Virus record (IMG/VR): IMGVR_UViG_3300037089_000228
Location: 1 to 45,325 of that record
Reading direction: 5' to 3' (one strand)
Length of the DNA: 45,325 nt
Source of the DNA: a virus
Below, piece by piece: positions 1 through 45,325 of the stretch. The first letter of the stretch is position 1; each line of letters begins with the position of its first letter. The position numbers and the translations under genes are program-made. Under the pieces are notes generated by a model that made no database searches, was not told the origin of the DNA, and was given only the letters and a program-made list of their open reading frames with translations.

Positions 1-108
1 TGCGGGGTGGAAAGCGTGACGGCGCCGAGCAGAGTACCAAACCGGCAATCCAAGGTCTGCCCGGCCGGCAGGATGTAGTAGGTGATGCCCGGCGTGTTGA
101 AGGTGCCG
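1..108. repeat. Left contig-end repeat, identical to 44316-44423
   Basis: These bases match 44316-44423 without a difference; the two sequences diverge from base 109 onward. They lie in the 5' part of the exported fibre-like gene. Together with the 863-989 / 45199-45325 match they bracket two alleles of the fibre locus. The repeat may extend left of the window edge. Confidence 0.95.
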
Positions 109-200
109 TTGCCGGTGCCGTCGCCCTTGACCGTGACGCTTTGGTGCTGGGCGAAGGCAATGGGGCCGGAGAGCAGAAAACAGAACAGTAGTCTTTTCAT
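1..200 (-). CDS. Exported fibre-like protein, allele 1 (3' part missing)
   Basis: The first 66 or so codons of a gene that runs off the left edge. The start ATG (200-198) overlaps the stop of the fibre gene as TAATG. The N-terminus has two basic residues and a hydrophobic core (KRLLFCFLLSGPIAFAQ), a clear Sec signal peptide. Mature sequence then reads VTVKGDGTGNGTFNTPGITY, nearly the same as the complete homologue at 43673-44533. The last 36 codons before the edge are identical in DNA to that homologue, while the signal peptide region differs. Seen directly: truncation by the window edge and identity with the right end. Inferred: this is the alternative allele of the 43673-44533 gene, not a second gene. 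Confidence 0.85.
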   Translation of the reverse strand, partial: MKRLLFCFLLSGPIAFAQHQSVTVKGDGTGNGTFNTPGITYYILPAGQTLDCRFGTLLGAVTLSTP

Positions 201-853
201 TAGGAAACCCTCACCCAGATGAGGCTCAGGGGATTGGTGACAGGAACGGTGAAGACGCCGCCCAAGCTGGCGCTGGGATCGCCTACCTGCATCGCCCGCA
301 GCTTCCAGATTTCAAAGTCATCCACGAGCGAGAGGGCGACAAAGAGCGGCAGTTGCGCCGTGGGGATCGCCGTCACGTTGAGCGAGTCGAGCGAGGTGCG
401 GATGCCCCCCGTCTCGGCGGTGATCCACCCCAGGGTGAGCAGTTGCGGCGCGCCGCCCACGGGCGGAAAGGGGTTGTACTGCTGGCCCAGCAGCTCTTGC
501 ACGAGCAGGGTCAGCTTGTCGTCGTCCTGCTCGATCATCAGCGGGGTGAGGATGCCGGTCGAGGCAAAGGTTGTGGTCTGCACCGGGCTGATGCCACGCG
601 AGATGGTGATGACATCGGACACCTGCACGGCGCTGGAGCCGGTGCCGACCACGGTGACGGAGCCGCCCTGCAACTGATTCAGGGCGTTGTAGCCGCCCCC
701 CGTGACCGTGTAGTCGCTATTGAGGACGAGGACGGTGGCGCCATCCGTGACCAAGAGGTCCGCCGCCACGTTGAAGGGGAAGGTGACGGCCAGCGTTTGC
801 GGCAGGCCGGTGATGGTGAACTGCAACCGCGAGACGGTGGATGCGACTGACAT
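200..853 (-). CDS. Tail fibre / adaptor protein, T7-fibre-N-terminus-like, allele 1
   Basis: 217 residues with a strong ribosome site (GGAGG seven bases before ATG). The pattern is that of the T7-type tail fibre N-terminal domain that binds the tail nozzle: a beta-rich start (LQFTITGLPQ), a DGATVLVLNSDYTV hairpin, ITISRGISPVQ, then a conserved PLMIEQDDDKLTLLVQELL helix near residues 103-122. The remaining 95 residues have no recognised receptor-binding fold, and the protein is much shorter than a full fibre. It probably serves as an adaptor for further tail proteins such as the exported fibre-like and glycine-rich proteins encoded next. It shares about 72% of residues with the 44538-45188 product (hand count of 60 differences). 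Differences concentrate at residues 74-80 and 163-190. It follows the ATP-grasp gene by 32 bases. Confidence 0.8.
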   Translation of the reverse strand: MSVASTVSRLQFTITGLPQTLAVTFPFNVAADLLVTDGATVLVLNSDYTVTGGGYNALNQLQGGSVTVVGTGSSAVQVSDVITISRGISPVQTTTFASTGILTPLMIEQDDDKLTLLVQELLGQQYNPFPPVGGAPQLLTLGWITAETGGIRTSLDSLNVTAIPTAQLPLFVALSLVDDFEIWKLRAMQVGDPSASLGGVFTVPVTNPLSLIWVRVS

Positions 854-862
854 GGGTGCCTC

Positions 863-989
863 CTATGCTTTTTTGCTGCGTTTGTCTAGGTTATTGCCAC
901 CGCCGGGTCGGGTAGCGGCTGGTCTGAAAACTTGATCCCCTTGGCCTGCGCCTCCTCGATTTCCTGAATGAGGTCGGCAAAGCCCCCAA
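863..989. repeat. 127-bp contig overlap, copy 1 (equals 45199-45325)
   Basis: Exactly 127 bases here equal the last 127 bases of the window; base 862 (c) differs from 45198 (t). The stretch covers the fibre gene leader and the C-terminal codons of the ATP-grasp gene. An overlap of exactly 127 is the usual largest k-mer of short-read assemblers, so it most likely marks where a circular or permuted genome was closed. Confidence 0.95.
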
Positions 990-2166
990 GTTCAATGGCT
1001 ACCGGTTCGTTCTTCATGACTTCGAAATTCTCCTTCAGGTGGTCGATGGCCTCCTCGACGGTGTTGCCGTTGCCAAGGACAACCCCCACCTCATCGCTCT
1101 GACGGGGCGGGAAATGAATCAGCCCGTCGTCCTCGGCATAGTGATAGAACTTGAACCAGCGGCGCGAGTCCTCGGGTACGCGCAGCACCTTCCAATCGTC
1201 GGCCTTGGTGGTGTAGTGCATGGTCGCCTCCGCTGCAAACTTGGCGGCAAACTGAGGCTGCACCAGCCGACCCTCCGCCCCCTCAACAATGATTTCAGGG
1301 AGATTGGTGCAAGTCTCCAGATAGTGCTCCTGCGTCTGCCCCGCCATGCGGAAGGTCGGATCGGTGAAGAACTTCCCGCGAATCTCGGTCGCCGTGAAAT
1401 TGCGGTAGCCAATCTCCTCCAGCAGCGGAGTGATGGCCTCGTTGACGACCCTCACCTGTTTCGGCAACTGCGTATCGTGCAGCCAGGCCCCCAGGTAAAG
1501 CTCGTTCTTCTTTTCAAAGCCAAAGAAACTCTTGTTGGGAAACTGCCCGTCCACCGAATAGCCGTCGTACCCAACTTCCTCGACGTCCTTGATCGGCTCC
1601 TGCACGACAAAGACCACGTTCTCAGCCAAGCCCCCGAAGTTAGTGGCAAGCCGCGTGAACTCCGCAAGGCTGTGCGCTTCATCTAGGTGGTGGAATGTCT
1701 CCATATCACGGCGGAAACGGTTCACCTTCACCCAAAGGTCAGTCTTGTCCTTCAAGTATTCGCGCAGCGCCGTGAGACCCGTGATGACCTTGGACGGAGG
1801 CACCGGCAGGCCCACCTCCGCCAGCATCTTCAGGAAGCGCGTGCGGAATAGCTCGTAGTCGCTTGCTCCCATCGCCCCCCAGACCGGCTTGCCGATGGAG
1901 CGCAGGTATTGCTGGAAGCCGCCCCAGCCTACATCGGGAAACACCCAATGAGTGACTTCATCAATGATCTCGGGCGACATCAGGTCGTCCAGCCGCTCGA
2001 CGTTCTTCATGCCGGTGCCGATGGCGCATGTCTTCAGCGTCCGGTATTCCTCCTCGAACGGGGTGTAGTAGTAGCACTTGCCCACCCTCTCGGCAAGCTT
2101 GGTGGACAAGCTCTGGAACGTACCGTAATCGACTACGGCGCAAACTATGTCGCTTATTTCTGGCAT
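886..2166 (-). CDS. ATP-grasp enzyme, PurD/GARS-like
   Basis: 426 residues. The arrangement is that of an ATP-grasp ligase related to phosphoribosylamine-glycine ligase. It has a Rossmann-like pre-domain (residues 1-95) and a substrate/ATP-binding middle with the LWVKVN strand near 145-150 and FVVQEPI near 186-192. It also has the late TATEIRGKFFTDPTFR segment (about 260-275), which resembles the GARS metal/ATP-binding TEIR...DP..R pattern. Such ligases couple ATP hydrolysis to formation of an amide or peptide-like bond. The substrate here cannot be deduced, and other purine genes are absent, so a role in nucleotide synthesis is doubtful. The ATG overlaps the upstream gene by 13 bases and lies directly before the tail fibre gene. 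A role in modifying a virion or surface component is speculative. Confidence 0.65.
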   Translation of the reverse strand: MPEISDIVCAVVDYGTFQSLSTKLAERVGKCYYYTPFEEEYRTLKTCAIGTGMKNVERLDDLMSPEIIDEVTHWVFPDVGWGGFQQYLRSIGKPVWGAMGASDYELFRTRFLKMLAEVGLPVPPSKVITGLTALREYLKDKTDLWVKVNRFRRDMETFHHLDEAHSLAEFTRLATNFGGLAENVVFVVQEPIKDVEEVGYDGYSVDGQFPNKSFFGFEKKNELYLGAWLHDTQLPKQVRVVNEAITPLLEEIGYRNFTATEIRGKFFTDPTFRMAGQTQEHYLETCTNLPEIIVEGAEGRLVQPQFAAKFAAEATMHYTTKADDWKVLRVPEDSRRWFKFYHYAEDDGLIHFPPRQSDEVGVVLGNGNTVEEAIDHLKENFEVMKNEPVAIELGGFADLIQEIEEAQAKGIKFSDQPLPDPAVAIT

Positions 2167-2564
2167 GGCTTGAGGGCCTTCGGCCCCGGATAGGTTTCAG
2201 CGAGTTCGCGGTCATAGTCCTCCCAGTTCACCCGCAGCTCGGCGCAGAGGATGCGCTCGATGGCCGTGGCGAGGCAGTGCTCGTGCTCGTAGGGCGCCTC
2301 GGGGTCGTCGCCCGCATCGCAGTCGTCCGCATGGGCGAGGTAGTAATCCTGGTCGAACTTGTCCACGGCGGTCTGTGGGACGCGGTTGAACTTGCACATG
2401 ATGGCCTCGACCGCCTCATGGATGCCGAGCAGGGCCTCGCGCCGCCAGTCGCTCATGGGCGAGACGCGCACCTGAAGGTCGCCGCGGGCGTCGAAGAACC
2501 AGTCGGCACCGCTGACCTCCTTGCGCTGCTGGGCCTCGGGGATGGTCTGGATGGAGATGTTCAT
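2154..2564 (-). CDS. Hypothetical acidic protein in the virion operon
   Basis: 136 residues. The ATG at 2564 overlaps the stop of the 1135-residue virion gene as ATGA, which fixes the start; an open frame continues upstream but only as a shadow. The protein is acidic, with a Asp/Glu/His-rich centre (DDCDAGDDPEAPYEHEH, about 80-96) and a tail ending KALKPCQK. No signal peptide, membrane segment or known domain is seen. Its place between the ejection-type proteins and the ATP-grasp gene suggests a tail or virion accessory function, but this is position only. Confidence 0.75.
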   Translation of the reverse strand: MNISIQTIPEAQQRKEVSGADWFFDARGDLQVRVSPMSDWRREALLGIHEAVEAIMCKFNRVPQTAVDKFDQDYYLAHADDCDAGDDPEAPYEHEHCLATAIERILCAELRVNWEDYDRELAETYPGPKALKPCQK

Positions 2565-5500
2565 CGGTCGTAGGGGGACTTGTTGGGGAAGGTGAGGGTG
2601 CGGCCTGTGGTGGCTGCGGGCTTGCTCGTATCGGGGCTGACGCGCACGCCGCTTGTGCCCATAATGGCCGCGTCGGTCAACGCCCAAAGCCAGTGATCGA
2701 TCTGGGTTTCGTTCATGCCCTGCTGCCGCCAGACCTCGCGCACCGCCTCGGAAACCGGGATGGGGGTCAGCTTCTCGGACATGTACTCGCCGTAGGTGTA
2801 CGGCCCCACACCCTCACGGCGCAGCCGGGCGGGCACCTTGTCCTCGGAGAAGGGGAGTGGGCGCTGCTGGAAGTCCGCCTGCGTCAGCAGGTCCGCCATG
2901 AGTCCCGTGAAGGGGCTCAACTTGGTGCGGCCATACTCATAGGCATCACGGGCCATTTCCTCGCCCCGTCCGCCCTCGGCTTTCTCGAACTGCGTGCGCG
3001 TGCCCAGCGAGGCGTGGAGCAGGTTAGCGAAGAGGCGCACCATGCCGATCATGGGGCTGATGACGCCGACCTTGTGCCCGGCAACCTTGAAGGCCAGAAA
3101 GTCCGCCTTCTTGGGGTCGGTGAAGTTGATGGACTGCTCCGCCCCCACGGCGGAGAGGAGCCCCTGATTCATGGCGAGGAGCCCCAAGTAGGTGCCGGTG
3201 ATGGCCGCCTTGTGCTTGAGTTCGCGCAGGGCAAAGTGCTGCTCGGCGGGGGTGGCGCTGCCCCAGTCCCACTGGCCGTCCTTCAGCCGCAGCTTGGAAA
3301 AGGTCTTGGCGGCCTTGGCGGGGTCGGCAAACATCCACGCCCAGCGCGAACCCTCGAGCCGCGGGGCAAAGAACGTCCATTGCGACCATTCTCGGAACCG
3401 CTGCCGGATGACCCCCGTGGCGTGGTTGGCCCCGTCCGCCAGCAGCTTGGCCTCGTCGGGCGTGCGCTCGCTCTCGGGCAGCGCGTTCCATTCCTTGTTG
3501 AACCAGCCCTGCCGCGTCAGCTTGATGGCGTCGTAGCCCCGGTTGCCGAGGAGCCCCAGCTTCTTGAACCATGTCTGGCTCCACGCGCTCTGGTAGTCCT
3601 CGGTGTAGCGGCGCGGGTCGTTCTGCAAGCCTGCCCGGCGCGCCGGCGTCCAGTTCGGGTCGCGCACCATGTCCTGCATCGTCCGCTCATGGTACGCCCC
3701 GTCATCGGTGAGTCCCATCATCCGGAAGGCCCGGAAGAAGTTTGTCCACCACGTCCCCGCCACCATCGGGTCAAAGACGTTGATGGCCCCGTGCGTGATG
3801 GAAATCACCGTGCCGTGCCCGAGGGTGGCCAGCCGGAAGAAGAAGCCGGGGACGGAGCGCGCAAACTTGATCCATTCGGGGTTGGCCTCGTTGCGCAGCC
3901 ACGTCTTGGCATCCTGCACCACGTCGCGCCGCTTGGAGAGCTTCTTGTACATCTCGTCCGTCATGCGGCGGAGGCTCTTGGGCTCGGCCAGATTCTTCGT
4001 CACCTCGTCCACCGACAGCCCCAAGTCCTGCGCGATCTTGTGGCGCATGTCGTCGAAGTTCGACTCACCCTCGTCGGCATACTTCTTGGCGAGGTTCCAC
4101 ACCGCCTTGACCTGCGCGGGCAGGTCTTTGAAGTCGGGGGGCATCTCCTTCAGGAAATCAAAGACCAGCTGCGAGGCCGACTCCGCCTCGTTCGTGGCCG
4201 TGCGCACCTTGCCCGCAATCTCCTTTGCCGCCTTGGCCTGCTCCAAATTGAAGTCCTCGCCCGTGGCCTGCTGGTAGCTACGGCGCAGGCCGTGGAAGCT
4301 GCCGGTGTCGATTTCCGCCTCGCCCTGCTGCGCCTCGCCGATGCGGTGCCACTCAGTCTGCATCGGCTTGATGGCCTGAATCCAGTCTGAATCAGCCTTT
4401 GCGGCGGCGGTGTACTCGGGCGAGTCGAGCCCGTGCTGGTCGGCGGCAAGATTTGCGGCCTTGGCCAGCTGCTCGCCGTGCGCCCGCACGAGGGCCATGT
4501 CCTCGCTGGACAGCTTGCCCGTCTCGGTGAAGGCTTGCAGGGTGGCGAAGGGGTTCTTGCCCGACTTCAAAAGCTCCCTCCCCTCGGCCACCGACTCCTC
4601 CCACGACATGCCCTCGCCGGGAATGACCGGCTCGATCTTGCCCTGCTTGGCGCGCATTTCGCTGACGCGGGCGGCAATGCCGTAGTCGCTCGGCGGGTTG
4701 GGCTTGGACGCCTTCCACTCGTCGATTTCCGCCTGCTGCTGCTCCAGCATGACCTTCTCCTTGGCGGTGGGCTTGCCCGTGCCGGTGGAAACCGACTCGT
4801 CGCGCTTTCCGATGTCAACAGGTTCGGCCTCCTCCGCCTTGGCGTCACCCGGCTTCAGGACGGCGGTGTCCCCCGGTGGCACGACATGCTCGGAATGAAG
4901 CTCGCCGCCGGGCGTGTCCGGGTCAACCTGACCAGCCGCCTTGGCGATGGCCATGCCCTGCTTGCGGTCAACAAACCTGCCTGCGGTCGTGGTGAATCCC
5001 TCCTTGCCCTCGGCAGCCACGTCGCGGTGGTGCAGTCCCTCGTGGACCTGCCCCGCGTCGTCCTTGATGGCGGCTGACTTGATGGCCTCGATGCCCGACA
5101 TGCCCGCCAGCGTCTTGGTGCCTGCAAAGGCACCGAGCGCATTGATGAAGAGATTGAGTTCGTCGCCCGCCAGCTGCCCCGCCGTGGTGGGCTTCCCGCG
5201 CAGTGCCCCGATGAAATCCTCGCCCGCCTGCTTGGCGGCGTCCCAGGTCTTGGCGGCAAAGAAAGGCACCGCATAGGCCATGGTGCCGGGCACCGTCAGC
5301 ATGGACACGCCGCCCGACGAGGTGGCGGAGCTCACAAGCCCGCCCGCCACATTGGCGAGCTTGGCCCCGACTTCGCCCGCCTCCTGCAAGCCGACCGGCA
5401 GGCCCTTGGGCATCGAAACCTGGGGAATCCTGACGGCAGGCTCGTCGAACGACTGCTCAACGCTCTGCTCGTACCGCTTCCACGGGGACGAGAAATACCG

Positions 5501-8116: not shown

Positions 8117-8518
8117 TTAAAGTCTCTTTCCGTACATTTTGTGGGCGGTCCCCTCGGAGGTTTCGTAGCCGAGCCGGCCCATGATGCGCTCCTCGCTGCT
8201 GCCGGGTGCCACCATGGAGATGATGGCCGAGCACCCCTGCTCCTTGGCCAGCTTCTCAATGTGCTCCAACAGCAGATGCCACGCCTTCACCGTCCGCTTG
8301 GTGAAGGAAAAGGCCGGGTTGGTGGTGAGGTATTCCACCATCGCCATCTTGCCCGAGGCATCGAGGTAGAGGAAGCCGGCGGCGATTTCATCGGCGCCAT
8401 CAACGGCCATGAAGCCCCACGGCAGGAACGCCTCGGGCACGGGGATGGCCCCGTGCTTCAGCCACCACTCCTTGAGGGTGGGAAAATCCTGCTCGGGAAT
8501 GAGGCGGCGGATGTTCAT
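8117..8518 (-). CDS. GNAT-like acetyltransferase fold protein
   Basis: 133 residues. The order resembles a short GNAT domain. An N-terminal MNIRRLIPEQDFPTLKEWW helix is followed by central strands with GFLYLDASGKMAMVEYLTTN (about 48-67). Next comes a helix with HLLLEHIEKLAKEQGCSAII (80-100), then ERIMGRLGYE (109-118), a typical GNAT end (helix then GF/GY). The acetyl-CoA loop (Q/RxxGxG/A) is not clear, so catalytic activity is uncertain. Similar small GNAT-like proteins often lie between the nozzle and internal virion genes of podoviruses, possibly as structural proteins. The start overlaps the nozzle stop as ATGA. Confidence 0.65.
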   Translation of the reverse strand: MNIRRLIPEQDFPTLKEWWLKHGAIPVPEAFLPWGFMAVDGADEIAAGFLYLDASGKMAMVEYLTTNPAFSFTKRTVKAWHLLLEHIEKLAKEQGCSAIISMVAPGSSEERIMGRLGYETSEGTAHKMYGKRL

Positions 8519-11412
8519 GGCGGGGTTATATCATACTTGACCGTGATCCCCAAGAGGCAAAACGGCAGCGGGTCATTGCCTTGGAGGGCAAACTGCGGGT
8601 CGAGCGAGTACCCGAAAAGCCCGCCTGTGTCCACCGGAATGTCCACCGGCAGGTTGGGATACCATGGCGGCGGCGAGCCGGGGATGGCGGTGATGTCGTA
8701 GGTGGGCAGCGGCGTCACGGTGCTCAAGGTGCCCAAGACCGGCGGGGCGCCCTGCGTGGACCAGTTGCCCCCAAGGGAGTTCAGGACGCGCAGGTAGAGG
8801 CGGGCGATGGACTTCGTGAGGCCCGCAATCGGCCCCGCCTTGGGGTCGAGATCGAGGCGCATGGGCTGCACCGCCCAGTTGACGGGGAAACCCACCACCA
8901 GCACGTCGCCAAGGGCGGGAACGTAGTTGGCAAGGGTGATGTTGCCGTTGATGTCGATGGCGCCGGGATAGTCCAAATTGTTCCACGCGGTGCGGCCATT
9001 GAGGGAAACACAGCGGACGCCGTACTGCCAGTAGACCGACGTCGCTGCGATGACGTTGGTGGCGGGGCTGGTGATGATGGCGGCGCTGTCGGCATAGACC
9101 GCCTGCGTCAGGTCCGGCTGCCCCACATTCGCGGTCTGCCAGTCCACCGGCCACAACCGCTCGATGTAGCATTGTCCGAGGCCGTTGCGCAGCACGCTCA
9201 CCCACACCTCGTCATCCTGCCCGTTTGCCCCGTAGATGACTTGCACGGACAGGAAAAGGTCGGTCGTGTTCACCCCGCTGACGACGCCGTGCGTCTCGTG
9301 CTTTGCCCAGCCGAACACCTCCTGCTCCATCGCGTAGGTCATCGAAATCAGCGACCCGTCGCCGCACACCGCCCAGAGGAGCGAGTGGTTCTCGAACTCC
9401 TGCTGGAAGTCGAACTGCTCCACCCGCGCCGCCGTGAGGTGCTGGGACAAGACCTGCATGTCCTGCGACATGTACTTGTTGGTGAAGACCGAGAAAAGCA
9501 TCTGCTGGAAGCGGGTGCCCTTGCGCGTGACATAGAAGGCGGCGTTGCTGACGATGAGGCCTGGCAGGTTGGGCGCGGAGCCGTTCGCGCTGTGCTCCAC
9601 CGCCAGCACGGCGGAGGGGGTGATGGCGGCGCTGCCGCCCTGCCCGCTGTTCATGATCCACTCGGCGCCCGCCAGCCCGATCATCAGGTCGGTCTGCGCG
9701 GTGAGCCACTGGATGGGGCCGCGCCCCGGCGCGTTCAGGTCGAAGGCGAGCCCGTAGGTGGCCTGCGACTGGTCGAGCAGGGAGAAGTTCTCGATGTCGT
9801 CCGTCTGCGTGCCCCAGATGCGCTGCGGCTGGTAGGTGCTGCCCCCATACCAGACCCGCTCCTGAAAGACCGCCACCGCCTGCGGGTAGCCGCGGTAGTC
9901 CGACCATGCGCCCTCCGACCAGTAGATGGTGGCCCCCGTGGAATAGAGCGGGGTGATGACCTGAGCCGTCTGGATGTAGGGGCTGCCCAGCATCCAGTGC
10001 GTGGGATCGCTGGGCGGGATCGTGGTGCCCGAGGTATTGACGATGCAGGTGTAGCTGTGCGTGCCGTAGTTGACGACATTGCCCACCACGTAGGCATTGC
10101 CCGACACCCACGCCGCCCACAGCTCGGTGAGCTGCAGGAGCCCGTACACAAACTGGTTGTCCGCCGTCAGGCTTAGGCGCGGCACCGAGGCCGAGGCCGA
10201 GGCGACGGGGTTCGTCACGACGAGGCGGTAGAGCCCGCCCACGATGTCCTGACCGGAGATGTTGAAGTTGGCGTCCGACCGGCTGGAGACCGTGGTGATG
10301 ACCTGCCACGTCACCCCGTTGTCGTAGCTCGCCTGCACCGACACGTCGGCCTGCCATGTGCCATAGGTGATGAACTCCCACGTGCCGATGATGAAAAGGG
10401 TCGAAACCGAATTGTACCACGCGCCGCCCGAGAAGGTGTAGTTGGGCCCGGACACGGCGGCGTCGTATTCGATGAACGAGGTGGGACGGTTGTAGGCCAG
10501 CTGCCAGTAGGAGTTCTTGTGCCCCTCCTGAAAGACCGTCACCAAGGTCCACAGGCCGTGCGCCAGGTCGGTCGAGAACAGGGCGTTGCTGACGTGGACC
10601 GCCGTGCAGGAATAGATCAGGCCGCCCGAGGTTACGGAATTTCCCGGCGTGTAGTACGTACCCGTGACCCACGCGGGAGCCGAGGCCGTGAGGGTGATCG
10701 CCCCCGTGAGCGCCGAGGCGGTGAGGCTCGTGTCCGTGGCGTTCTGGTCGAGCATGGCCGGCGTCATGAACTGCACCTGCTGCATGACCCAGTTGGTGTT
10801 CGAGTAGCGGGTCAGCTTGTAGACCGGATAGGAGGCGTGGACGAGGTAGACGACATCGTTGATCTGGATGCACTGGACCTTGAACACGTCCGCATCCCAG
10901 TAATTCGGCGGGGTGAAGTTGGTGGCGGAATAGGGCGCCGGCACCTCGTAGGTGTTCTGGTAGGCCCAGTGCGCGCTGTCGGTGCCCGGCGAACTCGTGG
11001 AGTTGATGAGCGGGCCGTTGTAGAGGTAGTAGATGACGCCCGACTGGCTCACGAAGGCACCCGCCGGGTAGGAGGTGCCCGTGACCCACGCCGGCGCGGT
11101 GGCAACCGTGACCTGCGCCCCGTTCGAGAAGAACCGGATGCCCTTGTCACAGAACTCCAGCATGAAGGTCGTGCCGGGCGCGTACTGGAATTTCTGGAGG
11201 CGCGAGACGGACTTGACCAGCGGGAAGCCCTCCTTGCCGAGGCCGATGAACTGCGTGCCCGGACGGCGCAGGGCGCCCCCCTGCTTGAGGGGAATCATGT
11301 TGCGCAGCTGGCGGCAGCCCTTGCGATAGGCGGGCAGGTCGAGGCGGGCGTCAAGGGATGGCGACAGCTCGCCCGAATTGAAGCAGACGAGGGGTTGCAG
11401 GGAGTGGGACAT
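8515..11412 (-). CDS. Tail nozzle / tubular protein B-like with carbohydrate-binding-like inserts
   Basis: 965 residues. The N-terminus matches podovirus nozzle/stabilisation proteins: FNSGELSPSLDARLDLPAYR (11-30) followed by RQLRNMIPLKQGGALRRPGT (34-53). Such proteins form the distal tail tube. Three similar aromatic segments interrupt it: APAWVTGTSYPAGAFV (about 106-150), APAWVTGTYYTPGNSV (245-290) and WAAWVSGNAYVVGNVV (about 433-478). Each begins W-V-G-Y-G and ends with an H-W, resembling chitin-binding type-3/CBM5-12 modules (W..G..Y..G..V...G..Y.C). These would place sugar-binding surfaces on the tail. The later part (RVWYGGSTYQPQRIWGTQTD, about 525-545) is typical of the family. Start TGATG overlap with the tail tube gene. 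Confidence 0.8.
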   Translation of the reverse strand: MSHSLQPLVCFNSGELSPSLDARLDLPAYRKGCRQLRNMIPLKQGGALRRPGTQFIGLGKEGFPLVKSVSRLQKFQYAPGTTFMLEFCDKGIRFFSNGAQVTVATAPAWVTGTSYPAGAFVSQSGVIYYLYNGPLINSTSSPGTDSAHWAYQNTYEVPAPYSATNFTPPNYWDADVFKVQCIQINDVVYLVHASYPVYKLTRYSNTNWVMQQVQFMTPAMLDQNATDTSLTASALTGAITLTASAPAWVTGTYYTPGNSVTSGGLIYSCTAVHVSNALFSTDLAHGLWTLVTVFQEGHKNSYWQLAYNRPTSFIEYDAAVSGPNYTFSGGAWYNSVSTLFIIGTWEFITYGTWQADVSVQASYDNGVTWQVITTVSSRSDANFNISGQDIVGGLYRLVVTNPVASASASVPRLSLTADNQFVYGLLQLTELWAAWVSGNAYVVGNVVNYGTHSYTCIVNTSGTTIPPSDPTHWMLGSPYIQTAQVITPLYSTGATIYWSEGAWSDYRGYPQAVAVFQERVWYGGSTYQPQRIWGTQTDDIENFSLLDQSQATYGLAFDLNAPGRGPIQWLTAQTDLMIGLAGAEWIMNSGQGGSAAITPSAVLAVEHSANGSAPNLPGLIVSNAAFYVTRKGTRFQQMLFSVFTNKYMSQDMQVLSQHLTAARVEQFDFQQEFENHSLLWAVCGDGSLISMTYAMEQEVFGWAKHETHGVVSGVNTTDLFLSVQVIYGANGQDDEVWVSVLRNGLGQCYIERLWPVDWQTANVGQPDLTQAVYADSAAIITSPATNVIAATSVYWQYGVRCVSLNGRTAWNNLDYPGAIDINGNITLANYVPALGDVLVVGFPVNWAVQPMRLDLDPKAGPIAGLTKSIARLYLRVLNSLGGNWSTQGAPPVLGTLSTVTPLPTYDITAIPGSPPPWYPNLPVDIPVDTGGLFGYSLDPQFALQGNDPLPFCLLGITVKYDITPP

Positions 11413-12257
11413 CAGCCGTTGGTGGAATTATAGCGCGAGCGCACGAAGCGGCTCTCGGATACGGGATTGTAACGCCGCAGCTTGATTTCCGCTCCATCCT
11501 TCATGCGGGCGTCGGAGAGGTATTCCTTGTATTCCTGCCGCAGGCCCATCGACAACCGGGCGTCGTCCTTGCGCAGGTGCGTGGCGATGATGCAGGCGAG
11601 GTTGAGGACCAGCGCCCCCGTGAACAGCGGGTCATAGTTGGTCGTGTCCGGCTCCCACCGGCTGTACTTGATGTTGGCGTAGGCTGCGTTGGTGTAGAGC
11701 GCCTTCTGGAAGATTTCGCAGGTGCGCCCGTTGTGGCTGCCCCACGCGCAGGTGCCGTTGAGTTCCACGAGCAGCACGAAGTCCCCTGGCAGCTCGTAGC
11801 CGAAGGTCCACTCGTACAAAAGCCCGGCGTTGCCCTGCGGCGGCCCGAGGTAGTTGGGCGAGTAGGTGTCAGTTTGGAACCAGCACCCCCGCGTCAGGTC
11901 GTAGGCGAAGCTCGTGCTGGCCGTGTTGGCGATGAGGCACTGGTAAAGGTAGCCCGCGTAGATGACGTAGGCGTTGACCGCGTAGGCCACCCCCGGCGTC
12001 CATGTCGTGGCGGTGGAGGGCACGGGCGGCCACACGGGGGGCGACGGGTTCTGCCCCGGCGTCAGCTGCCCAAGGAAGGCGCGCTTCTTCAGGCAGCTCC
12101 ACGGCTGCGCCCGCGAGACCTCGCCCAAAGCCTGCCCCCAAGCCACGTTGCAGGCAATCGCGTTGGGATCGCTCTGGTTGGTGAGGGACGAGATGGTCTG
12201 CTGACCAATCCGCATCAGGGCCAAGTTGGCGATGTCGGTCGATGAAGTAAGCTGCAT
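11412..12257 (-). CDS. Tail tubular protein A-like / adaptor with an inserted sugar-binding-like module
   Basis: 281 residues. The beginning (SSTDIANLALMRIGQQTISS, then SDPNAIACNVAW and LGEVSRAQPWSCLKKRA, residues 5-60) is the hallmark of the gatekeeper/tail tubular A family that joins portal to nozzle. An inserted segment at about 85-126 (TWTPGVAYAVNAYVIYAGYL, YQC, ending in a tryptophan) interrupts the usual fold and resembles the CBM5/12-like segments of the nozzle protein. The family fold resumes at LLYEWTFGYELPGDFVLLVE. The C-terminal half has LACIIATHLRKDDARLSMGL, also usual for the family. The start lies ten bases after the terminator-like hairpin at 12267-12300. Confidence 0.8.
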   Translation of the reverse strand: MQLTSSTDIANLALMRIGQQTISSLTNQSDPNAIACNVAWGQALGEVSRAQPWSCLKKRAFLGQLTPGQNPSPPVWPPVPSTATTWTPGVAYAVNAYVIYAGYLYQCLIANTASTSFAYDLTRGCWFQTDTYSPNYLGPPQGNAGLLYEWTFGYELPGDFVLLVELNGTCAWGSHNGRTCEIFQKALYTNAAYANIKYSRWEPDTTNYDPLFTGALVLNLACIIATHLRKDDARLSMGLRQEYKEYLSDARMKDGAEIKLRRYNPVSESRFVRSRYNSTNG

Positions 12258-16210: not shown

Positions 16211-16767
16211 GGGTAGAGAAAATCCCGAATGACGAGGAGTACGTCATCGAACCGGTTGTGAATGTCCCGAAGGTCAATGAGTTCGACTCGACGGGTAGGA
16301 TCAAGCTGCAAATAAACGTCGCGGTTCTCCCGCTGGCCGATGCGAGGCTCGGTTGCCAGATCAGCCACGTCCTCGATGACGTAGATGCCGTCCTTGGCGA
16401 GGTGTGGGGAAAGGTTGCGGTAGATGGCGATCTGGTCCCAGATGCGGTGGCTGGCATCGTCAATGATGATGTCGAACCTCATGCCGCCCAACTTGGTTTC
16501 CACCTCAAACGAGCTGGTCGCGTCCAGAATCTTCACCCGGTCGTCCTGGTAGGCGGTCGGGTCGTTGTCCACGCCGTAGACCTTGCCGTTCGGGAAGTAG
16601 GCGTCCCACATCCTGAGCGAGTCACCGGAGCACACCCCGATTTCCAGCAGGGTGATGGGCTTGAGGCGCAACCGTTCAAACAGCCGCTCATAGACCTCAA
16701 GGTAGGAGTGGATGGTCCCCTTGTCGGTCAGGGGAAACCGCGCTGCAATCTGGGCGAGGGTTTCCAT
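16207..16767 (-). CDS. SAM-dependent methyltransferase, class I (sugar O-methyltransferase type)
   Basis: 186 residues. The SAM-binding loop is LLEIGVCSGDSLRMW (40-54), followed by GKVYGVDNDP (61-70) with an acidic residue for the ribose. FDIIIDDASH (98-107) is motif IV, and DGIYVIEDVADL lies near 125-136. This combination (LEIGVxxGxSLxMW, then IIDDxSH) is typical of the macrocin/mycinamicin O-methyltransferase type that methylates sugars. Placed between a GT-A enzyme and the fucosyltransferase, with TGATG and ATGA overlaps, it is best read as capping a sugar with a methyl group. Confidence 0.8.
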   Translation of the reverse strand: METLAQIAARFPLTDKGTIHSYLEVYERLFERLRLKPITLLEIGVCSGDSLRMWDAYFPNGKVYGVDNDPTAYQDDRVKILDATSSFEVETKLGGMRFDIIIDDASHRIWDQIAIYRNLSPHLAKDGIYVIEDVADLATEPRIGQRENRDVYLQLDPTRRVELIDLRDIHNRFDDVLLVIRDFLYP

Positions 16768-17516
16768 CAGGGCACCACCTGATCCAAGAGCGGGAAGATG
16801 TAGTTGCGCTTCTCCTCAACGTGGACCATGCCCTTCTTCAGGTTGCCCCAGCCCTTCTCCCGGTTCTCCGCGCACATGCGCTCGATGTTGCCCTCATAGC
16901 GGGCGGCGATGGCCTCAGCGGGGCCGATCTGATGGTAGTGCAACAGGTAGGCGGAGGGCGTGGCGAAGGGCCAGTCATGGCCGACGCGCAGCTTGCGCCC
17001 GTCATGCAGCACCGGATCGGCCTCGTGCTGCCCGATGCCAAGGGCGCTGTCCCTGACCAGCTTCGGGTTGAAAAGGCATGGCTTCGCGTACCACTTGTCG
17101 TCGGGCGCGCCGAACTTGATCTCGTCGTAAATCTGGCCAGGACCGGTCGGCAGCCGCCCCGAGAACATCTCGAAGCCGTGCGTCTTGATGACCGCGGCTC
17201 CCTTAGCCATGTACGCCGCCAGCGTCTTCGCCGCACCCTCGGGGAACCAGATGAACTCGTCGGCGTCCACCACGATCACCCAGTCAGCGGTCGTGGCCTT
17301 CCAGCAGGAATTGCACAATTCCATGTACCGCGTGTTGCTCACCTCGGGGCAGTCCCACGGGATGATGACCACGCCCTTGGGCAATCGCAGTTTCAGCGGT
17401 TGCCCTGCGTTGTGGATGACCAGCTTCGATGCGAACGTCCGGTAGTGCCGGATGATGTACGGCAGCAGCCAGGTCTCGTAGTAGAACAGAACGTGAACCT
17501 CGACCTTGATTTTCAT
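16767..17516 (-). CDS. GT-A glycosyltransferase (Glyco_tranf_2_4-like)
   Basis: 249 residues; ATG at 17516 overlaps the stop of the upstream gene as TAATG. The protein opens KIKVEVHVLFYYETWLLPYI, a family-2-type beginning ('N E..LL.ywl.Hy'), and has IVVDADEFIWFPEG (81-94), where DAD is the metal-binding DxD. HDWPFATPSAYLLHYHQIGP (about 195-214) contains the late His pair usual in this family. It lacks a signal peptide and transmembrane segments, so it acts in the cytoplasm. Acceptor unknown. Its neighbours are a GT2 enzyme upstream and a methyltransferase downstream. Confidence 0.8.
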   Translation of the reverse strand: MKIKVEVHVLFYYETWLLPYIIRHYRTFASKLVIHNAGQPLKLRLPKGVVIIPWDCPEVSNTRYMELCNSCWKATTADWVIVVDADEFIWFPEGAAKTLAAYMAKGAAVIKTHGFEMFSGRLPTGPGQIYDEIKFGAPDDKWYAKPCLFNPKLVRDSALGIGQHEADPVLHDGRKLRVGHDWPFATPSAYLLHYHQIGPAEAIAARYEGNIERMCAENREKGWGNLKKGMVHVEEKRNYIFPLLDQVVP

Positions 17517-18184
17517 TAGACACCCGCCAGTTTCCGCAAATCCTCGTCTGACTTGAAAAACGGTGCATACGCCGCCGCGTCCTTGCCGATCAGCTTGCGC
17601 AGCTGCTTCAGGTCCGGGTCGGGGTTGGCATGGTTGGGCAGCATGGAGACATGCTCCCCGGAATATCCTATCGTTCCCGGCAGGGACTTCATGCCGATCA
17701 CCCGCCGCTCCCCGTCGCCGGGCAGGCGCAGGTGGCGGTTGCGCTCCAGCCTCCAGAGGCGCGTGTCGAACCACTGGTTGTCAAAGGCAGTGATGATGGA
17801 GCAGAAGGTCGGGATCAGGTCGGAACTGAGCGCGGTCTGACAGAGCGAGGCATGCCGGGCGTTCTCGCAGTTCGACCACCAGCGCCAGCGCACGTTGTAG
17901 TAGATGGCCTGCCCCTCGCCCACGATTTCATAACCCTTGGCCAGCCACTCCTCGCACCATTCCAGCCACGTCGGGGCGTACCAGTCGTCGTCCTCCCAGA
18001 TGACCAGACCGTCGCCCTTGACCCTGCCGCCCTCGAACGCCTTGAGCAGCTTGAAGCCCATTTTCTCCGGGCCGTCCAGCACGAGCCACTGGTCGGGCGG
18101 GCGCGTCTGCCGCTCGATGTACTTCCGGCAGAGCTTCATCGCCTCGGGGCGCTTCCACGTGGCGGTGATGACGGTCAGTTTCAT
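17516..18184 (-). CDS. GT2-like glycosyltransferase
   Basis: 222 residues, start set by ATGA overlap with the methyltransferase stop. MKLTVITATWKRPEAMKLCR is the classic N-terminal nucleotide-sugar strand of family 2. It is followed by DQWLVLDG (31-38) and VIWEDDDWYAPTWLEW (61-76), the D-x-D metal site with an aromatic follower. Basic residues RLERNRHLRLPGDGERRVIG come near 150-170. No membrane segments. The C-terminal part includes SLPGTIGYSGEHVS, which may form the acceptor site. One of three GT-A enzymes in the cassette, which suggests an oligosaccharide of at least three to four sugars. Confidence 0.8.
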   Translation of the reverse strand: MKLTVITATWKRPEAMKLCRKYIERQTRPPDQWLVLDGPEKMGFKLLKAFEGGRVKGDGLVIWEDDDWYAPTWLEWCEEWLAKGYEIVGEGQAIYYNVRWRWWSNCENARHASLCQTALSSDLIPTFCSIITAFDNQWFDTRLWRLERNRHLRLPGDGERRVIGMKSLPGTIGYSGEHVSMLPNHANPDPDLKQLRKLIGKDAAAYAPFFKSDEDLRKLAGV

Positions 18185-18776: not shown

Positions 18777-19532
18777 TTACTTCCTTGGTTTCTTGAGGTG
18801 GATCACCTTGTCCTCCGTGGGCTCCTGCCCCGGTATCGGCGGCCATTCGCCCGCAGGGTAGAGCGTGCCGTCCCCGTCGCGGTGCTTCAGCTTGACCGCC
18901 GTGTCCACCCAGACCGAGATGCGGCACATGCGGCAGAGATAGTCGCAGAAATAGTCCTCCGGCAGCAGGTCGCCCGCCTTCTGGAGGTCGTGGTAGACGA
19001 CGAGGTTTTGGAAGAAGCCGTTCACCACGCTGCCGGTGTCCCGGTCGGTGTAGGAAATCTGCGGGTAAATCTTGGCAAGGTTTTCAAACAGCTGGCGATG
19101 GTAGAGCTTGAGGCCCGCCCCGCACTCCATGACCTGAAGCACGGTCTCCTTCTGCTTCTCCGCCTCAAACAGGAAGGTCGCCACCCAGTGCGGCCTGACC
19201 CCCTTGGTCGTGTAGAGCGCGCCAATGACCGGCAGCTTCTTGGACAGCAGTTGCAGGACGTGCGCGGCGTTTGATTCCACGTCATAGTCGCGGAAAAGGA
19301 GCCACTTGCACTTGCTCTTGAGAAAGTTTTCCACCAGCCGGTTGCGGGCGGGGATGAGCCCCTGGTCGCAAAAGGCCAGCACGAACTCGTAGGGGCAGTC
19401 CGGGTCGCGGGAGAGCAGGGTCAGGTCGTCCAGTTGCGCGGCGAACTGCGGGTTGAGCTGCTTGAGCGTCCGCAAATCCTTCAGCGGAGTCGCCACCATG
19501 ACCTGAATCTTCTTTGGGCGTTTATGTTTCAT
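18777..19532 (-). CDS. GT-A-like glycosyltransferase, first gene of the cassette
   Basis: 251 residues from ATG 19532 (a TTG twelve bases upstream is also open). A basic start is followed by KIQVMVATPLKDL and PYEFVLAFCDQGLIPARNRL (47-66), then WLLFRDYDVE (77-86). The order 'P..RN.l...Fl....llf.D.D' is typical of phage and bacterial GT-A glycosyltransferases; DYD is the probable metal site. YHRQLFENL (near 147-155) and LLPEDYFCDYLCRM (about 191-204) also fit. It overlaps the GroES-like gene by 11 bases, so the cassette is transcribed with the head genes. Confidence 0.75.
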   Translation of the reverse strand: MKHKRPKKIQVMVATPLKDLRTLKQLNPQFAAQLDDLTLLSRDPDCPYEFVLAFCDQGLIPARNRLVENFLKSKCKWLLFRDYDVESNAAHVLQLLSKKLPVIGALYTTKGVRPHWVATFLFEAEKQKETVLQVMECGAGLKLYHRQLFENLAKIYPQISYTDRDTGSVVNGFFQNLVVYHDLQKAGDLLPEDYFCDYLCRMCRISVWVDTAVKLKHRDGDGTLYPAGEWPPIPGQEPTEDKVIHLKKPRK

Positions 19533-19800
19533 GGGCCAGTCCAACTAGGTCTTGTTCTCGGAGCAGGGTGAAGGTGCGGTTGTCCCAGTGGTAGTGGTCG
19601 CCCGCATAGTCCTTCAGGGCCACGCGGTCGCCCACCTTGCACGCCGTCACGCGGGCGCCGACGCCCACCACCGTCGCCAGCACGGTCGGGGCGTAGCGGG
19701 TCGTTTTCTCAAGGCACTCGGGCACGAGGATGGCCCCCACCTTGAGCGGCTTGGCCGGGTCTTTCTCGACCAGCACGCGGTTGCCAATGGGCTGGATCAT
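19522..19800 (-). CDS. GroES-like co-chaperonin (Cpn10)
   Basis: 92 residues, the normal GroES length (about 95). The start IQPIGNRVLVEKDPAKP matches Cpn10 'I.PL.DRVLV...'. The mobile loop carries hydrophobic GAILVPE (22-28; GroES has GGIVL). ATVVGVGARVTACKVGDRVA (42-61) matches 'G.V.AVG.G......VKVGD.V', and the end FTLLREQDLVGL matches 'Y.i..E.DILA'. It would cap the host GroEL during folding of phage proteins, as T4 gp31 does for its capsid protein. It sits in the head operon, two genes after the scaffold and before the glycan cassette, ATGA-coupled to the upstream gene. Confidence 0.85.
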   Translation of the reverse strand: MIQPIGNRVLVEKDPAKPLKVGAILVPECLEKTTRYAPTVLATVVGVGARVTACKVGDRVALKDYAGDHYHWDNRTFTLLREQDLVGLAHET

Positions 19801-32560: not shown

Positions 32561-33322
32561 ATGAAACTCTACAAGCTCACCACGCAGGACGGCTATACCC
32601 GCTACCACGAAACTAACGAGACGCTTTGGTCTAAGGGCAAGACCGTCGAAAAGCCCGCCAAGGATAATCCGCGGCTTTGCACCGCGGATGTCGTGCACGC
32701 CACGGTTGACCTTGATCTGGCGCTGCTGCTCAACCTGAATCAGGGCAATATCAGCAACCCGCAACCGTGGGAAGCCAAGGGCAAACCGGTGGTGCGCGAT
32801 TACGGCAAGGTGGGCTGCTTCAAGCTCACCACGGTCAAAAAGCTGCCGGTGCCCGCATGGTACTCCAATGCAACCAAGGCGCAGAGGGTGCGCGTGCGGT
32901 TCGCCATTTTGTGTGCCCGCTCGGTGCTTTCCATTTATGAGTCGAGGTATCCGGAAGACAAGCGACCTAGCGCGGCCATCGAAGCAGCGGAACGCTGGTT
33001 GGATGGCCGCGCGTCGGCGCAAGAACTACGGAACGCCGCCGACGCCGCCGCCGACGCCGCCGCCGCCGCCTCCGCCGCCTCCGCCGCCTACGCCGCCTCC
33101 GCCGACGCCGCCTACGCCGCCGCCGCCTCCGCCGCCTCCGCCGCCTACGCCGCCGCCGCCTACGCCGCCGCCGCCTCCGCCGCCTCCGCCGCCTACGCCG
33201 CCTCCGCCGCCGCCGACGCCTCCGCCGCCGACGCCGACGCCGCCGCCTTAAAAAGCAAAATGCCGCCGATTGATTTCGGGGTCTTTGCGCGGCAGGCGGT
33301 GGCCGCTGAAATGAAGGAGTGA
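32561..33322 (+). CDS. Repeat protein with long Ala-rich helix
   Basis: 253 residues. The N-terminal 150 residues (MKLYKLTTQDGYTRYHETNE, then GCFKLTTVKKLPVPAWYSNA, RFAILCARSVLSIYESRYPE) match a common phage/bacterial unknown family with a YKLT start and a later 'Y....P.....i.aAe.wl.g'. A 71-codon tract (33035-33247) of Ala with regular Asp, Ser and Tyr (AADAAADAAAAASAASAAYA) then forms a very regular helix. The C-terminus resumes with IDFGVFARQAVAAEMKE. Proteins with the same 'AAxAAAxAA' helices occur as phage or immunity-type proteins of unknown role. No ribosome site was found. First gene of the second early group. Confidence 0.7.
   Translation: MKLYKLTTQDGYTRYHETNETLWSKGKTVEKPAKDNPRLCTADVVHATVDLDLALLLNLNQGNISNPQPWEAKGKPVVRDYGKVGCFKLTTVKKLPVPAWYSNATKAQRVRVRFAILCARSVLSIYESRYPEDKRPSAAIEAAERWLDGRASAQELRNAADAAADAAAAASAASAAYAASADAAYAAAASAASAAYAAAAYAAAASAASAAYAASAAADASAADADAAALKSKMPPIDFGVFARQAVAAEMKE
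33035..33247 (+). repeat. GCC-based triplet tract coding Ala-rich helix
   Basis: Nearly pure GCC codons with periodic GAC, TCC and TAC, in units of GCCGCCNNC. The tract leaves all frames open: poly-Pro in another plus frame and poly-Arg on the minus strand, which create long spurious frames. Slippage-prone, so length may vary between individuals. Confidence 0.9.
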
Positions 33323-43672: not shown

Positions 43673-44533
43673 TTAGAAATTCTGCACGACGTTGCCGTAG
43701 TAGGTTCCGGAAAAATCCACTATGGTCCAAACGTCAGTATGAGCTCCGACCGTCTGCGTCGGCTGCGATCCGGCCACCCACTTGATCGAGTTGCCCCAAG
43801 TGACGGTGTAATTCGAGGCTGTGTTCGTGATAGCCACGACGAGCGTCTGTCCATCCAGGGCGTTGCTAAACGTTACTGTGTTCAGATTCCCGTTCAGCGT
43901 GATCGAGTGGTTGTTTCCGGACGCCCAGTTGATCGTGACGGCGTTACCCGACTCCGTGTCGGCCGTCGTTACGGGCATCAGGTTCTGATTGGTTGTGCCC
44001 CTATTGGCGTTCGAGCTGACCGAGATTGTCGTGAAAGCCCCGGTGCTGGGAGCTGTGCCTCCAATTGCAGGAGGCGAAGCAAGATATGTTGAGAACCCTG
44101 TCCCCGATACCGTACTGGAAGCCGAGAGCGTCGTGAAGGCCCCCGTGCTTGCTGTCGTGCTGCCGATGGCGGGAGGCGACGCGAAAAGAGAGGTGATTCC
44201 CGCACCGCTGACCGTACTGGAGAAAGTGCCCGTGGTCGCCGATACCGCCGCAAGCGTCGAGGTGCCGGTCACCGTCAGTCCCGCGAAGGTCGGGCTGCTG
44301 CCCGTGCCGATGGTCTGCGGGGTGGAAAGCGTGACGGCGCCGAGCAGAGTACCAAACCGGCAATCCAAGGTCTGCCCGGCCGGCAGGATGTAGTAGGTGA
44401 TGCCCGGCGTGTTGAAGGTGCCGGTGCCCGTGCCATCGGGCAGCACGGTAACGGCCTGTTGCGCGTTCCCTGTGGTATCCCATAGCGCGGAACCCGCGAG
44501 GGCAAGGAGTGAAAGGAGCAGGAGCTTTTTCAT
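43673..44533 (-). CDS. Exported fibre-like protein with repeated shaft motif, allele 2
   Basis: 286 residues. A signal peptide (MKKLLLLSLLALAGSALWD) precedes a beta shaft with repeats (ASPPAIGSTTASTGAFTTLS; ASPPAIGGTAPSTGAFTTIS), two clear copies and a third degenerate one (GSSPTFAGLTVTG). This repeat style is known from phage tail fibres. The C-terminal 100 residues (VTINWASGNNHSITLNGNLN, then SNALDGQTLVVAITNTASNY) form a compact beta domain ending with TYYGNVVQNF. It follows the fibre adaptor gene by four bases and precedes the glycine-rich gene. A shaft/knob role is likely. Confidence 0.75.
   Translation of the reverse strand: MKKLLLLSLLALAGSALWDTTGNAQQAVTVLPDGTGTGTFNTPGITYYILPAGQTLDCRFGTLLGAVTLSTPQTIGTGSSPTFAGLTVTGTSTLAAVSATTGTFSSTVSGAGITSLFASPPAIGSTTASTGAFTTLSASSTVSGTGFSTYLASPPAIGGTAPSTGAFTTISVSSNANRGTTNQNLMPVTTADTESGNAVTINWASGNNHSITLNGNLNTVTFSNALDGQTLVVAITNTASNYTVTWGNSIKWVAGSQPTQTVGAHTDVWTIVDFSGTYYGNVVQNF
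44316..44423. repeat. Right copy of the 108-bp contig-end repeat
   Basis: Equals 1-108. Lies in the N-terminal shaft codons of the exported fibre-like gene; left flank of the allelic segment. Confidence 0.95.
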
Positions 44534-44537
44534 GGGA

Positions 44538-45188
44538 TTAAAGGCCGCGGGCCCAGATGAGGGCGCCGGGGTTGGTGACGGGCACGACGAAGGCCCCCGT
44601 CACGCTGACAGACGGGTCGCCCAGCGCCATCGCCCGCAGGTTCCAGATTTCGCCGTGGCCAAGGATGGTGACAAGGATGGACAGCGGCAGGAGGTAGGTG
44701 GGGATGGCCGTGACGTTGAGCGAGTCGATGGTGAGGCGCGTGCCGCCCGTCTCGCCCGTGATCCAGCCCACCGTCAGCAGGACCGGCGCACCGTTGACCG
44801 GCGGGAAGGGGTTGTACACCCACCCCGAAAGCTCCTGAATCAAGGTCGTGAGCTTGTCGTCGTCCTGCTCGATCATCAGCGGCGTGAGGATGCCGGTCGA
44901 GGCAAAGCTCGTGGTTTGCACCGGGCTGATGTTGCGCGAGATGGTGATGATGTCACCCGCCACAACCGTATTCGCCCCCGTGCCCACCACGACCACGGAG
45001 CCGGTCTGGAGCTGGTTGAGGGCATTGTAACCGCCACCCGCCACCGTGTAGTCGCTGCCCAACACAAGGACGTTGGCCCCATCCACCACGAGCAGGTCGG
45101 CGGCGACATTGAAGGCGAAGGTGGCGAGCGTCTGCGGGAGCGCGGTGATGGTAAATTGCAGGCGGGCCGTGGTTGATGCTAACGACAT
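44538..45188 (-). CDS. Tail fibre / adaptor protein, allele 2
   Basis: 216 residues with the same T7-fibre-N-terminal-like pattern as 200-853: LQFTITALPQ, ITISRNISPVQ and the conserved PLMIEQDDDKLTTLIQEL segment. One residue shorter at the AVTFPF/ATFAF position. The C-terminal region (about 162-190, AIPTYLLPLSILVTILGHGE) is the most changed part. Good GGAGG ribosome site, with a two-base difference in the leader. Its flanks are identical to those of allele 1, so the two are read as alternatives at one locus. Confidence 0.8.
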   Translation of the reverse strand: MSLASTTARLQFTITALPQTLATFAFNVAADLLVVDGANVLVLGSDYTVAGGGYNALNQLQTGSVVVVGTGANTVVAGDIITISRNISPVQTTSFASTGILTPLMIEQDDDKLTTLIQELSGWVYNPFPPVNGAPVLLTVGWITGETGGTRLTIDSLNVTAIPTYLLPLSILVTILGHGEIWNLRAMALGDPSVSVTGAFVVPVTNPGALIWARGL

Positions 45189-45198
45189 GGTGCCTCCT

Positions 45199-45325
45199 CT
45201 ATGCTTTTTTGCTGCGTTTGTCTAGGTTATTGCCACCGCCGGGTCGGGTAGCGGCTGGTCTGAAAACTTGATCCCCTTGGCCTGCGCCTCCTCGATTTCC
45301 TGAATGAGGTCGGCAAAGCCCCCAA
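45199..45325. repeat. 127-bp contig overlap, copy 2
   Basis: Equals 863-989 exactly, to the last base of the window. Confidence 0.95.
45222..45325 (-). CDS. ATP-grasp gene, 3' end only (overlap copy)
   Basis: The last 33 complete codons and stop of the ATP-grasp enzyme, identical to 886-989, running off the right edge. It is the same gene as 886-2166 seen again through the contig overlap. Confidence 0.9.
   Translation of the reverse strand, partial: GGFADLIQEIEEAQAKGIKFSDQPLPDPAVAIT

What the first reader, a model, noticed from the sequence alone, without database searches (positions are those of the whole stretch)
1..989. Contig ends hold two alleles of one fibre locus
1-108 equals 44316-44423 and 863-989 equals 45199-45325 (exactly 127 bases), while the 754 and 775 bases between differ strongly. 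A tandem duplication would need a repeated piece of the ATP-grasp gene. A circular or permuted genome of about 44.3 kb (863-45198) with two fibre alleles in the population explains it more simply. The 127-base length fits an assembly k-mer.
Basis: partly seen in the sequence, partly recalled or inferred. Interest (0 to 1): 0.75.

Follow-up and report, generated by a model that had tools for sequence, protein, structure and literature searches.

The report
Two phage fibre alleles, one contig
The two ends of this phage contig carry two different versions of the same tail-fibre anchor gene from one phage population, strung onto one contig by the assembler because the genome closes into a circle; it is a clean example of a known kind of phage diversity and a known assembly effect.

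Summary
Exactly one 127-mer occurs twice in the window, and no 128-mer does; it is the contig's last 127 bases, the signature of a k=127 assembly loop. Among 79 microvirus contigs (circular genomes) of the same collection, 28 have perfect and 21 imperfect end overlaps; two show the same 127-base pattern. An independent contig (PMZA01000513.1, in an Armatimonadetes MAG from a fen) crosses the presumed closure without a gap, in single copy, with 2 differences in 25,654 bases outside the locus. Inside, its anchor gene is a perfect A/B chimera, switching within a 32-base stretch identical in both alleles. The genome is therefore one molecule of about 44.3 kb: allele B closes the loop, allele A is a dangling path. 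The gene encodes a T7 gp17-like fibre anchor; the segment also covers the signal-peptide end of the next gene. Both alleles are under purifying selection (dN/dS about 0.26), so homologous replacement is likely. Read depth could not be tested. The biology is known (flexible fibre modules, metaviromic islands); the chimera is the most interesting part.

The parts
863..989 (.). the only 127-mer that occurs twice in the window; junction of the assembly loop (3' end of the ATP-grasp gene plus intergenic bases); same as 45199-45325
45199..45325 (.). last 127 bases of the contig, second copy of the 127-mer
1..108 (.). left shared flank, inside gene 2; identical to 44316-44423; the allele A path stops here
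44316..44423 (.). left shared flank in the allele B path
109..862 (.). allele A diverged segment (754 b)
44424..45198 (.). allele B diverged segment (775 b)
200..853 (-). gene 1 allele A, 217 aa, fibre anchor of the T7 gp17 N-terminal kind
   Evidence: fold from the allele B model, 73% identical
44538..45188 (-). gene 1 allele B, 216 aa, same gene
1..200 (-). 5' part of gene 2, allele A, cut by the contig end; starts with a signal-peptide-like sequence; in frame with 44315-43673
43673..44533 (-). gene 2 (286 aa), allele B start; fibre-like repeats, signal-peptide-like N-terminus
886..2166 (-). ATP-grasp-fold protein, 426 aa, conserved upstream neighbour of gene 1
513..544 (.). 32-base stretch identical in A and B; the switch point of the chimeric MAG contig; lies in the conserved TPLMIEQDDDKLT motif
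44851..44882 (.). the same 32-base stretch in allele B
44314..44314 (.). one of only two single-base differences between the window and MAG contig C34 outside the locus; 2 bases beyond the left end of the A path

Best explanation
The record is one podovirus-like phage genome of about 44.3 kb, circular or circularly permuted/terminally redundant, from a population polymorphic at one locus. Allele B lies on the main path (863-45198, 44,336 b), which closes on itself at the 127-mer 863-989 = 45199-45325 in a k=127 de Bruijn graph. Allele A is a second path into the same 127-mer, dangling at its far end. The assembler walked A, then the main loop, and stopped at the already used junction, so both alleles ended up on one contig. 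The locus encodes a short T7 gp17-like fibre anchor (gene 1) and the signal-peptide end of gene 2. A and B are old functional alleles; one probably replaced the other by homologous recombination within identical flanks. Shown: repeat structure, k=127 signature, an independent contig through the closure in single copy, polymorphism confined to the locus over 25.7 kb, purifying selection, anchor fold. Inferred: which allele is rarer, recombination as the route, an effect on which distal fibre or host surface is used.
For: One and only one repeated 127-mer, located at the contig end; no repeated 128-mer. Left shared block 108 b, below k. Assembler k-mer-length end repeats are documented (PMC8116208). 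Control: of 79 gokushovirus contigs in the same collection (circular genomes), 28 have perfect and 21 imperfect end overlaps; L064 and L071 have the same right-hand 127-base block behind a mismatch. MAG contig C34/PMZA01000513.1 runs gap-free from window 43529 through gene 2 and gene 1 into the ATP-grasp gene and on to 5109, then scaffolded to 26073, with 2 differences in 25,654 b outside the locus and a perfect A/B mosaic inside it (86 A-type then 168 B-type columns, no exceptions). Relatives checked whole hold one copy of gene 1; those with the ATP-grasp homologue have it directly or closely upstream. dN 0.224, dS 0.86. Terminase, portal, head, tail and replication genes are present, so the loop is a plausible whole genome. 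Relatives L003/L004 are 92-100% identical in the ATP-grasp gene, about 39-77% in gene 1 and the first part of the next gene, then 87-98% again.
Against: No reads were available, so depth and pairing are untested. C34 is a scaffolded contig (N-gaps) and carries a chimera, so no independent contig carries full A or full B. The left end of A stops 19 bases short of k without a direct explanation. Near-identical records are hidden from the collection scans, so further copies could not be counted.
Confidence: 0.88

Rival explanations
1. True partial tandem duplication: one genome carries both gene 1A and gene 1B with duplicated pieces of gene 2 and of the ATP-grasp gene.
For: Both copies sit in one contig; a repeat longer than 127 b would also make a k=127 assembly stop 127 b into it.
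Against: MAG contig C34 has one copy in gap-free sequence at 99.99% identity outside the locus; relatives checked whole have one copy; a repeat break on the left should also show 127 shared bases, not 108; duplicated gene fragments would be left behind. C34 could still be a collapsed or deleted version of a duplication.
Confidence: 0.05
2. Allele A belongs to a different, related phage that shares only short identical flanks, so the contig joins two phage populations rather than two alleles of one.
For: A and B agree in only 67% of aligned columns, far more than normal within-population variation; how far identity extends beyond the left flank of A is not visible in the window.
Against: C34 carries A-type sequence joined gap-free to more than 4 kb identical to the window, in a genome otherwise 99.99% identical. 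No other phage with A or B was found in the viral contigs, although very near records are hidden.
Confidence: 0.05
3. Programmed variation: a diversity-generating retroelement, invertible segment or cassette switch that changes the fibre anchor within one lineage.
For: Fibre genes are the classic targets of such systems (established knowledge; PMC6199706 describes one).
Against: Differences are spread through synonymous and non-synonymous sites (dS 0.86), not directed; no other copy or template in the genome and no inverted repeat of 20 b or more; no reverse transcriptase, invertase or integrase among the roughly 31 proteins scanned, though not every small ORF was scanned.
Confidence: 0.02
4. 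Side question, compatible with the main account: the chimera in MAG contig C34 is an assembly error (a short word size allowed a switch inside the 32-base identical stretch), not a third haplotype.
For: The switch falls in a stretch of 32 identical bases; Stordalen Mire metagenomes were assembled with CLC (PMC6786970), if this fen MAG comes from there; C34 has scaffolding N-gaps.
Against: The same conserved motif is a natural crossover point, and C34 differs from the window at two other bases, so it is not the same genome copy.
Confidence: 0.55

Closest known systems
k-mer-length end repeats of circular genomes in short-read assemblies (CheckV DTR contigs, PMC8116208)
   Same: End repeat equal to an assembler k, caused by a closed template
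   Different: Here the repeat is internal on the left side because a second allele dangles from the junction, so a simple end-to-end repeat test does not see it
Flexible gene modules of cryoconite phages (PMC7468147)
   Same: Near-identical core genome, strongly diverged homologous variants of tail-fibre/receptor genes coexisting at one locus, attributed to recombination
   Different: Here seen inside one contig, and in a short N-terminal anchor gene rather than a receptor-binding domain
Metaviromic islands in marine phages (PMC3909814)
   Same: Tail-fibre locus variable within otherwise near-identical phages
   Different: There the C-terminal part of the fibre varies and the N-terminus is kept; here the anchor and the next gene's N-terminus differ
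T7 gp17 N-terminal fibre anchor and its structural relatives (LME-1, Carin-1, P-SCSP1u, PhiM1)
   Same: Similar predicted fold for about residues 1-96 (VIA-align Z 8.3, rmsd 3.0, 70 aligned to 7ey9_c; Z 8.0, rmsd 2.6, 79 aligned to 8ck1_B; Z 8.0, rmsd 2.9, 77 aligned to 9efk_AE)
   Different: A separate 216-217 aa protein without a long distal shaft; the C-terminal half is modelled poorly

Membership tests
Assembly loop of a closed genome (DTR-type contig) | repeat length equals an assembler k-mer | tested here: met
   one repeated 127-mer, no repeated 128-mer; that 127 is a standard k is my own knowledge, with 127-base blocks also in L041, L064, L071, L073
Assembly loop of a closed genome (DTR-type contig) | the same sequence at both contig ends | tested here: not met
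   the right-end repeat matches 863-989, not 1-127; it works like a DTR contig with a dangling second path, but is not one by the strict definition
Assembly loop of a closed genome (DTR-type contig) | sequence continues across the closure in independent data | tested here: met
   C34 gap-free from 43529 through gene 1 to 5109
Flexible fibre module / metaviromic island | near-identical core with diverged homologous variants at one fibre locus | tested here: met
   2 differences in 25,654 b outside the locus, about 67% column identity between A and B inside
Flexible fibre module / metaviromic island | under-recruitment of reads or co-presence of variants by read depth | not testable with these tools
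   no reads held
T7 gp17-like fibre N-terminal anchor | sequence similarity to phage fibre/tail N-termini | tested here: met
   allele A matches phrog_1640 positions 1-118 (E 1.4e-10), allele B positions 43-120 (E 5.7e-10); no Pfam hit
T7 gp17-like fibre N-terminal anchor | anchor fold | tested here: met
   Foldseek and VIA-align matches to solved fibre anchors over about residues 1-96; moderate model confidence
T7 gp17-like fibre N-terminal anchor | binds the portal-tail complex | not testable with these tools
   needs an experiment
Diversity-generating retroelement | reverse transcriptase and template repeat with directed substitutions | tested here: not met
   no reverse transcriptase hit among proteins scanned (small ORFs not all scanned), no template copy, substitutions largely synonymous

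The most novel reading that the evidence does not exclude
The A/B chimera in the independent contig is a real third haplotype: the conserved 32-base stretch under the TPLMIEQDDDKLT motif acts as a crossover point that shuffles the two halves of a fibre-anchor gene within one nearly clonal phage population, so the anchor rather than only the receptor-binding tip is the exchanged part.
Probability: 0.4. Interest if true: 0.45.

Novelty: new member of a known kind. Interest (0 to 1): 0.35.

Why it matters
It turns an apparently linear 45.3 kb contig into a probably complete 44.3 kb genome with one known polymorphic locus. It also shows a pattern that end-to-end repeat tests miss: a single repeated k-mer at one contig end matching an internal site behind a diverged homologous segment. 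In the control set imperfect end overlaps were nearly as frequent as perfect end repeats (21 against 28 of 79), so more complete viral genomes and allele pairs can be recovered this way. Biologically it is one more case of fibre-locus allele exchange, somewhat unusual in touching the anchor domain.

Tried and rejected
Exact and protein scans of the viral collection for the same or a near phage found nothing closer than about 61% aa; near-identical records are hidden there. Phage GenBank records have no gene 1 relative. Relatives of the MAG hold no other copy (only short chance matches). I tested whether near-identical pairs of relatives carry different gene 1 alleles: L005/L100, L102/L103 and L092/L093/L094 are near-identical throughout the shared stretch, so they add only that some contigs break in or just after gene 1. 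Tandem duplication, retroelement and inversion were considered and set aside (see rivals). JGI assembly parameters could not be looked up, so '127 is a standard metaSPAdes k' rests on my own knowledge; control contigs with 127-base end blocks support it. End-repeat lengths in the control set are not only k values (121, 123, 144 and others also occur), so length alone is a supporting, not a decisive, argument.

Full report
OBSERVATION. Positions 1-108 equal 44316-44423 and 863-989 equal 45199-45325. The 754 and 775 bases between are homologous but diverged: 527 of 781 alignment columns agree (67%, gaps counted). The two anchor proteins are 73% identical. The window is the whole virus record.

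WHY IT LOOKS LIKE AN ASSEMBLY LOOP. Exactly one 127-mer occurs twice in the 45,325 bases, and no 128-mer does. It is the last 127 bases of the contig and recurs at 863. In a de Bruijn graph of k=127 this is one junction with two ways in (862 and 45198) and one way out (990). The path from the junction round to itself is 44,336 bases and carries allele B. The path 1-862 is allele A, which shares only 108 bases with the other path on its left side, fewer than k, so it dangles. The authors of CheckV describe end repeats equal to assembler k-mer lengths for closed templates (PMC8116208). That 127 is a standard metaSPAdes setting is my own knowledge.

CONTROL. I fetched 80 gokushovirus contigs from the same collection, whose genomes are circular. 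Leaving out the isolate record L012, 28 of 79 have perfect end repeats and 21 have imperfect end overlaps. Examples are L042 (677 b at 96%), L060 (628 b at 92%) and L023 (314 b at 94%). L064 and L071 end in exactly 127 repeated bases behind a mismatch, with a shorter exact block on the other side and exactly one repeated 127-mer, as in the window. The window's layout is therefore a recurrent result for closed genomes with strain variation.

INDEPENDENT CONTIG. A scan of bacterial genomes with the anchor-gene alignment found contig PMZA01000513.1 in a MAG labelled Armatimonadetes bacterium isolate fen_943. Its 26,689 bases run from window 43529 through gene 2, gene 1 and the ATP-grasp gene to 26073, i.e. 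across the presumed closure; the first 5,919 bases have no gap. Outside the locus it differs from the window at 2 bases (44314 and 23899) in 25,654. It holds one copy of gene 1. That copy is a perfect mosaic: from the ATP-grasp side it is identical to allele A (86 diagnostic columns), and after a 32-base stretch common to both alleles it is identical to allele B (168 diagnostic columns), with no exception. The contig is either a real A/B recombinant or an assembly switch. Stordalen Mire metagenomes were assembled with CLC (PMC6786970), which I believe can use words shorter than 32 bases; that this MAG comes from Stordalen Mire is inferred from its isolate name. In either case A and B sequence occupies the one locus of one nearly clonal genome.

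WHAT THE LOCUS ENCODES. Gene 1 matches phage tail-fibre families at its N-terminal half. Its model, built on allele B and confident only over roughly residues 10-90, matches solved fibre anchors of LME-1, Carin-1, P-SCSP1u, PhiM1 and T7 gp17. The upstream gene has an ATP-grasp fold. Gene 2 has fibre-like repeats and, in both alleles, a signal-peptide-like start. The diverged segment begins 9 bases upstream of the gene 1 start codon and ends about 30-37 codons into gene 2. Across the 44315/1 join gene 2 stays in frame with allele A. Between A and B dN is 0.224 and dS 0.86, with the C-terminal half faster (dN 0.32 against 0.16), so both look functional and old.

RELATIVES. Twenty viral loci with gene 1 relatives were found, from about 61% identity down. 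The records checked whole (L003, L004, L005) carry it once. Where an ATP-grasp homologue was found it lies directly or closely upstream. L003 and L004, from different samples, are 92-100% identical in the ATP-grasp gene, about 39-77% in gene 1 and the first part of the next gene, and 87-98% after that. A similar segment is thus exchanged elsewhere in the family.

MECHANISM. Best account: homologous recombination between related phages replaced the anchor segment within conserved flanks, giving two (perhaps three) coexisting alleles. The anchor joins fibre parts to the tail, so alleles may differ in which distal parts they carry or how they fit; this last step is inference. Close precedents are the flexible modules of cryoconite phages (PMC7468147) and metaviromic islands (PMC3909814), although in the latter the receptor-binding end is the usual variable part.

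LIMITS. No reads, so depth and pairing are untested. Records near the window are hidden from collection scans. The MAG's label is weak evidence of host, because a phage contig can be binned wrongly.

Noticed in passing
window 43673-44533, 42749-43669, 41942-42370 (-); gene 2 homologues at L003 11105, L004 11051, L095 11250; gene 1 homologues L096 7911, L098 2102, L099 7905, L101 7920, L102 7890: Fibre-module proteins begin with Sec-like or lipoprotein-like signal sequences, judged by eye; unexpected for virion fibres assembled in the cytoplasm. Both alleles of gene 2 keep one despite divergence. No signal-peptide predictor was run.
   Followed up: partly
window 44314: The only difference between the window and MAG contig C34 in the left flank lies 2 bases beyond where the allele A path ends; the left break may be a second branch point rather than low depth.
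   Followed up: partly
L003 and L004, 6700-11100: Two relatives share near-identical ATP-grasp genes but diverged gene 1 and start of the next gene, then become similar again: a similar exchange segment in another pair.
   Followed up: yes
L100 8001-8244, L093 8969, L094 9184: Contigs of near-identical relatives end in or just after gene 1; L100 differs from L005 only at two bases, both within its last 26 bases. L092 has an imperfect repeat there (8834-8974 and 9044-9184).
   Followed up: partly
window 886-2166; homologues in L003, L004, L005, L092-L096, L098, L100-L103: An ATP-grasp-fold protein with no Pfam or PHROG match is a conserved neighbour upstream of the fibre anchor in these podovirus-like phages; function unknown.
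   Followed up: partly
window 8515-11412 and 11412-12257 (-): Two tail proteins (phrog_376, phrog_394) each carry a match to a CBM_5_12 carbohydrate-binding module.
   Followed up: no
window 33034-33209 and 33940-34085: Short tandem-like repeats; weak matches to the stretch near 33.0-33.2 kb occur at several places in the MAG, possibly low complexity.
   Followed up: no
window 16767-17774 and 18777-19544 (-): Glycosyltransferase-like proteins (PF13704 above cut-off; Anp1 below cut-off) lie among the structural genes.
   Followed up: no
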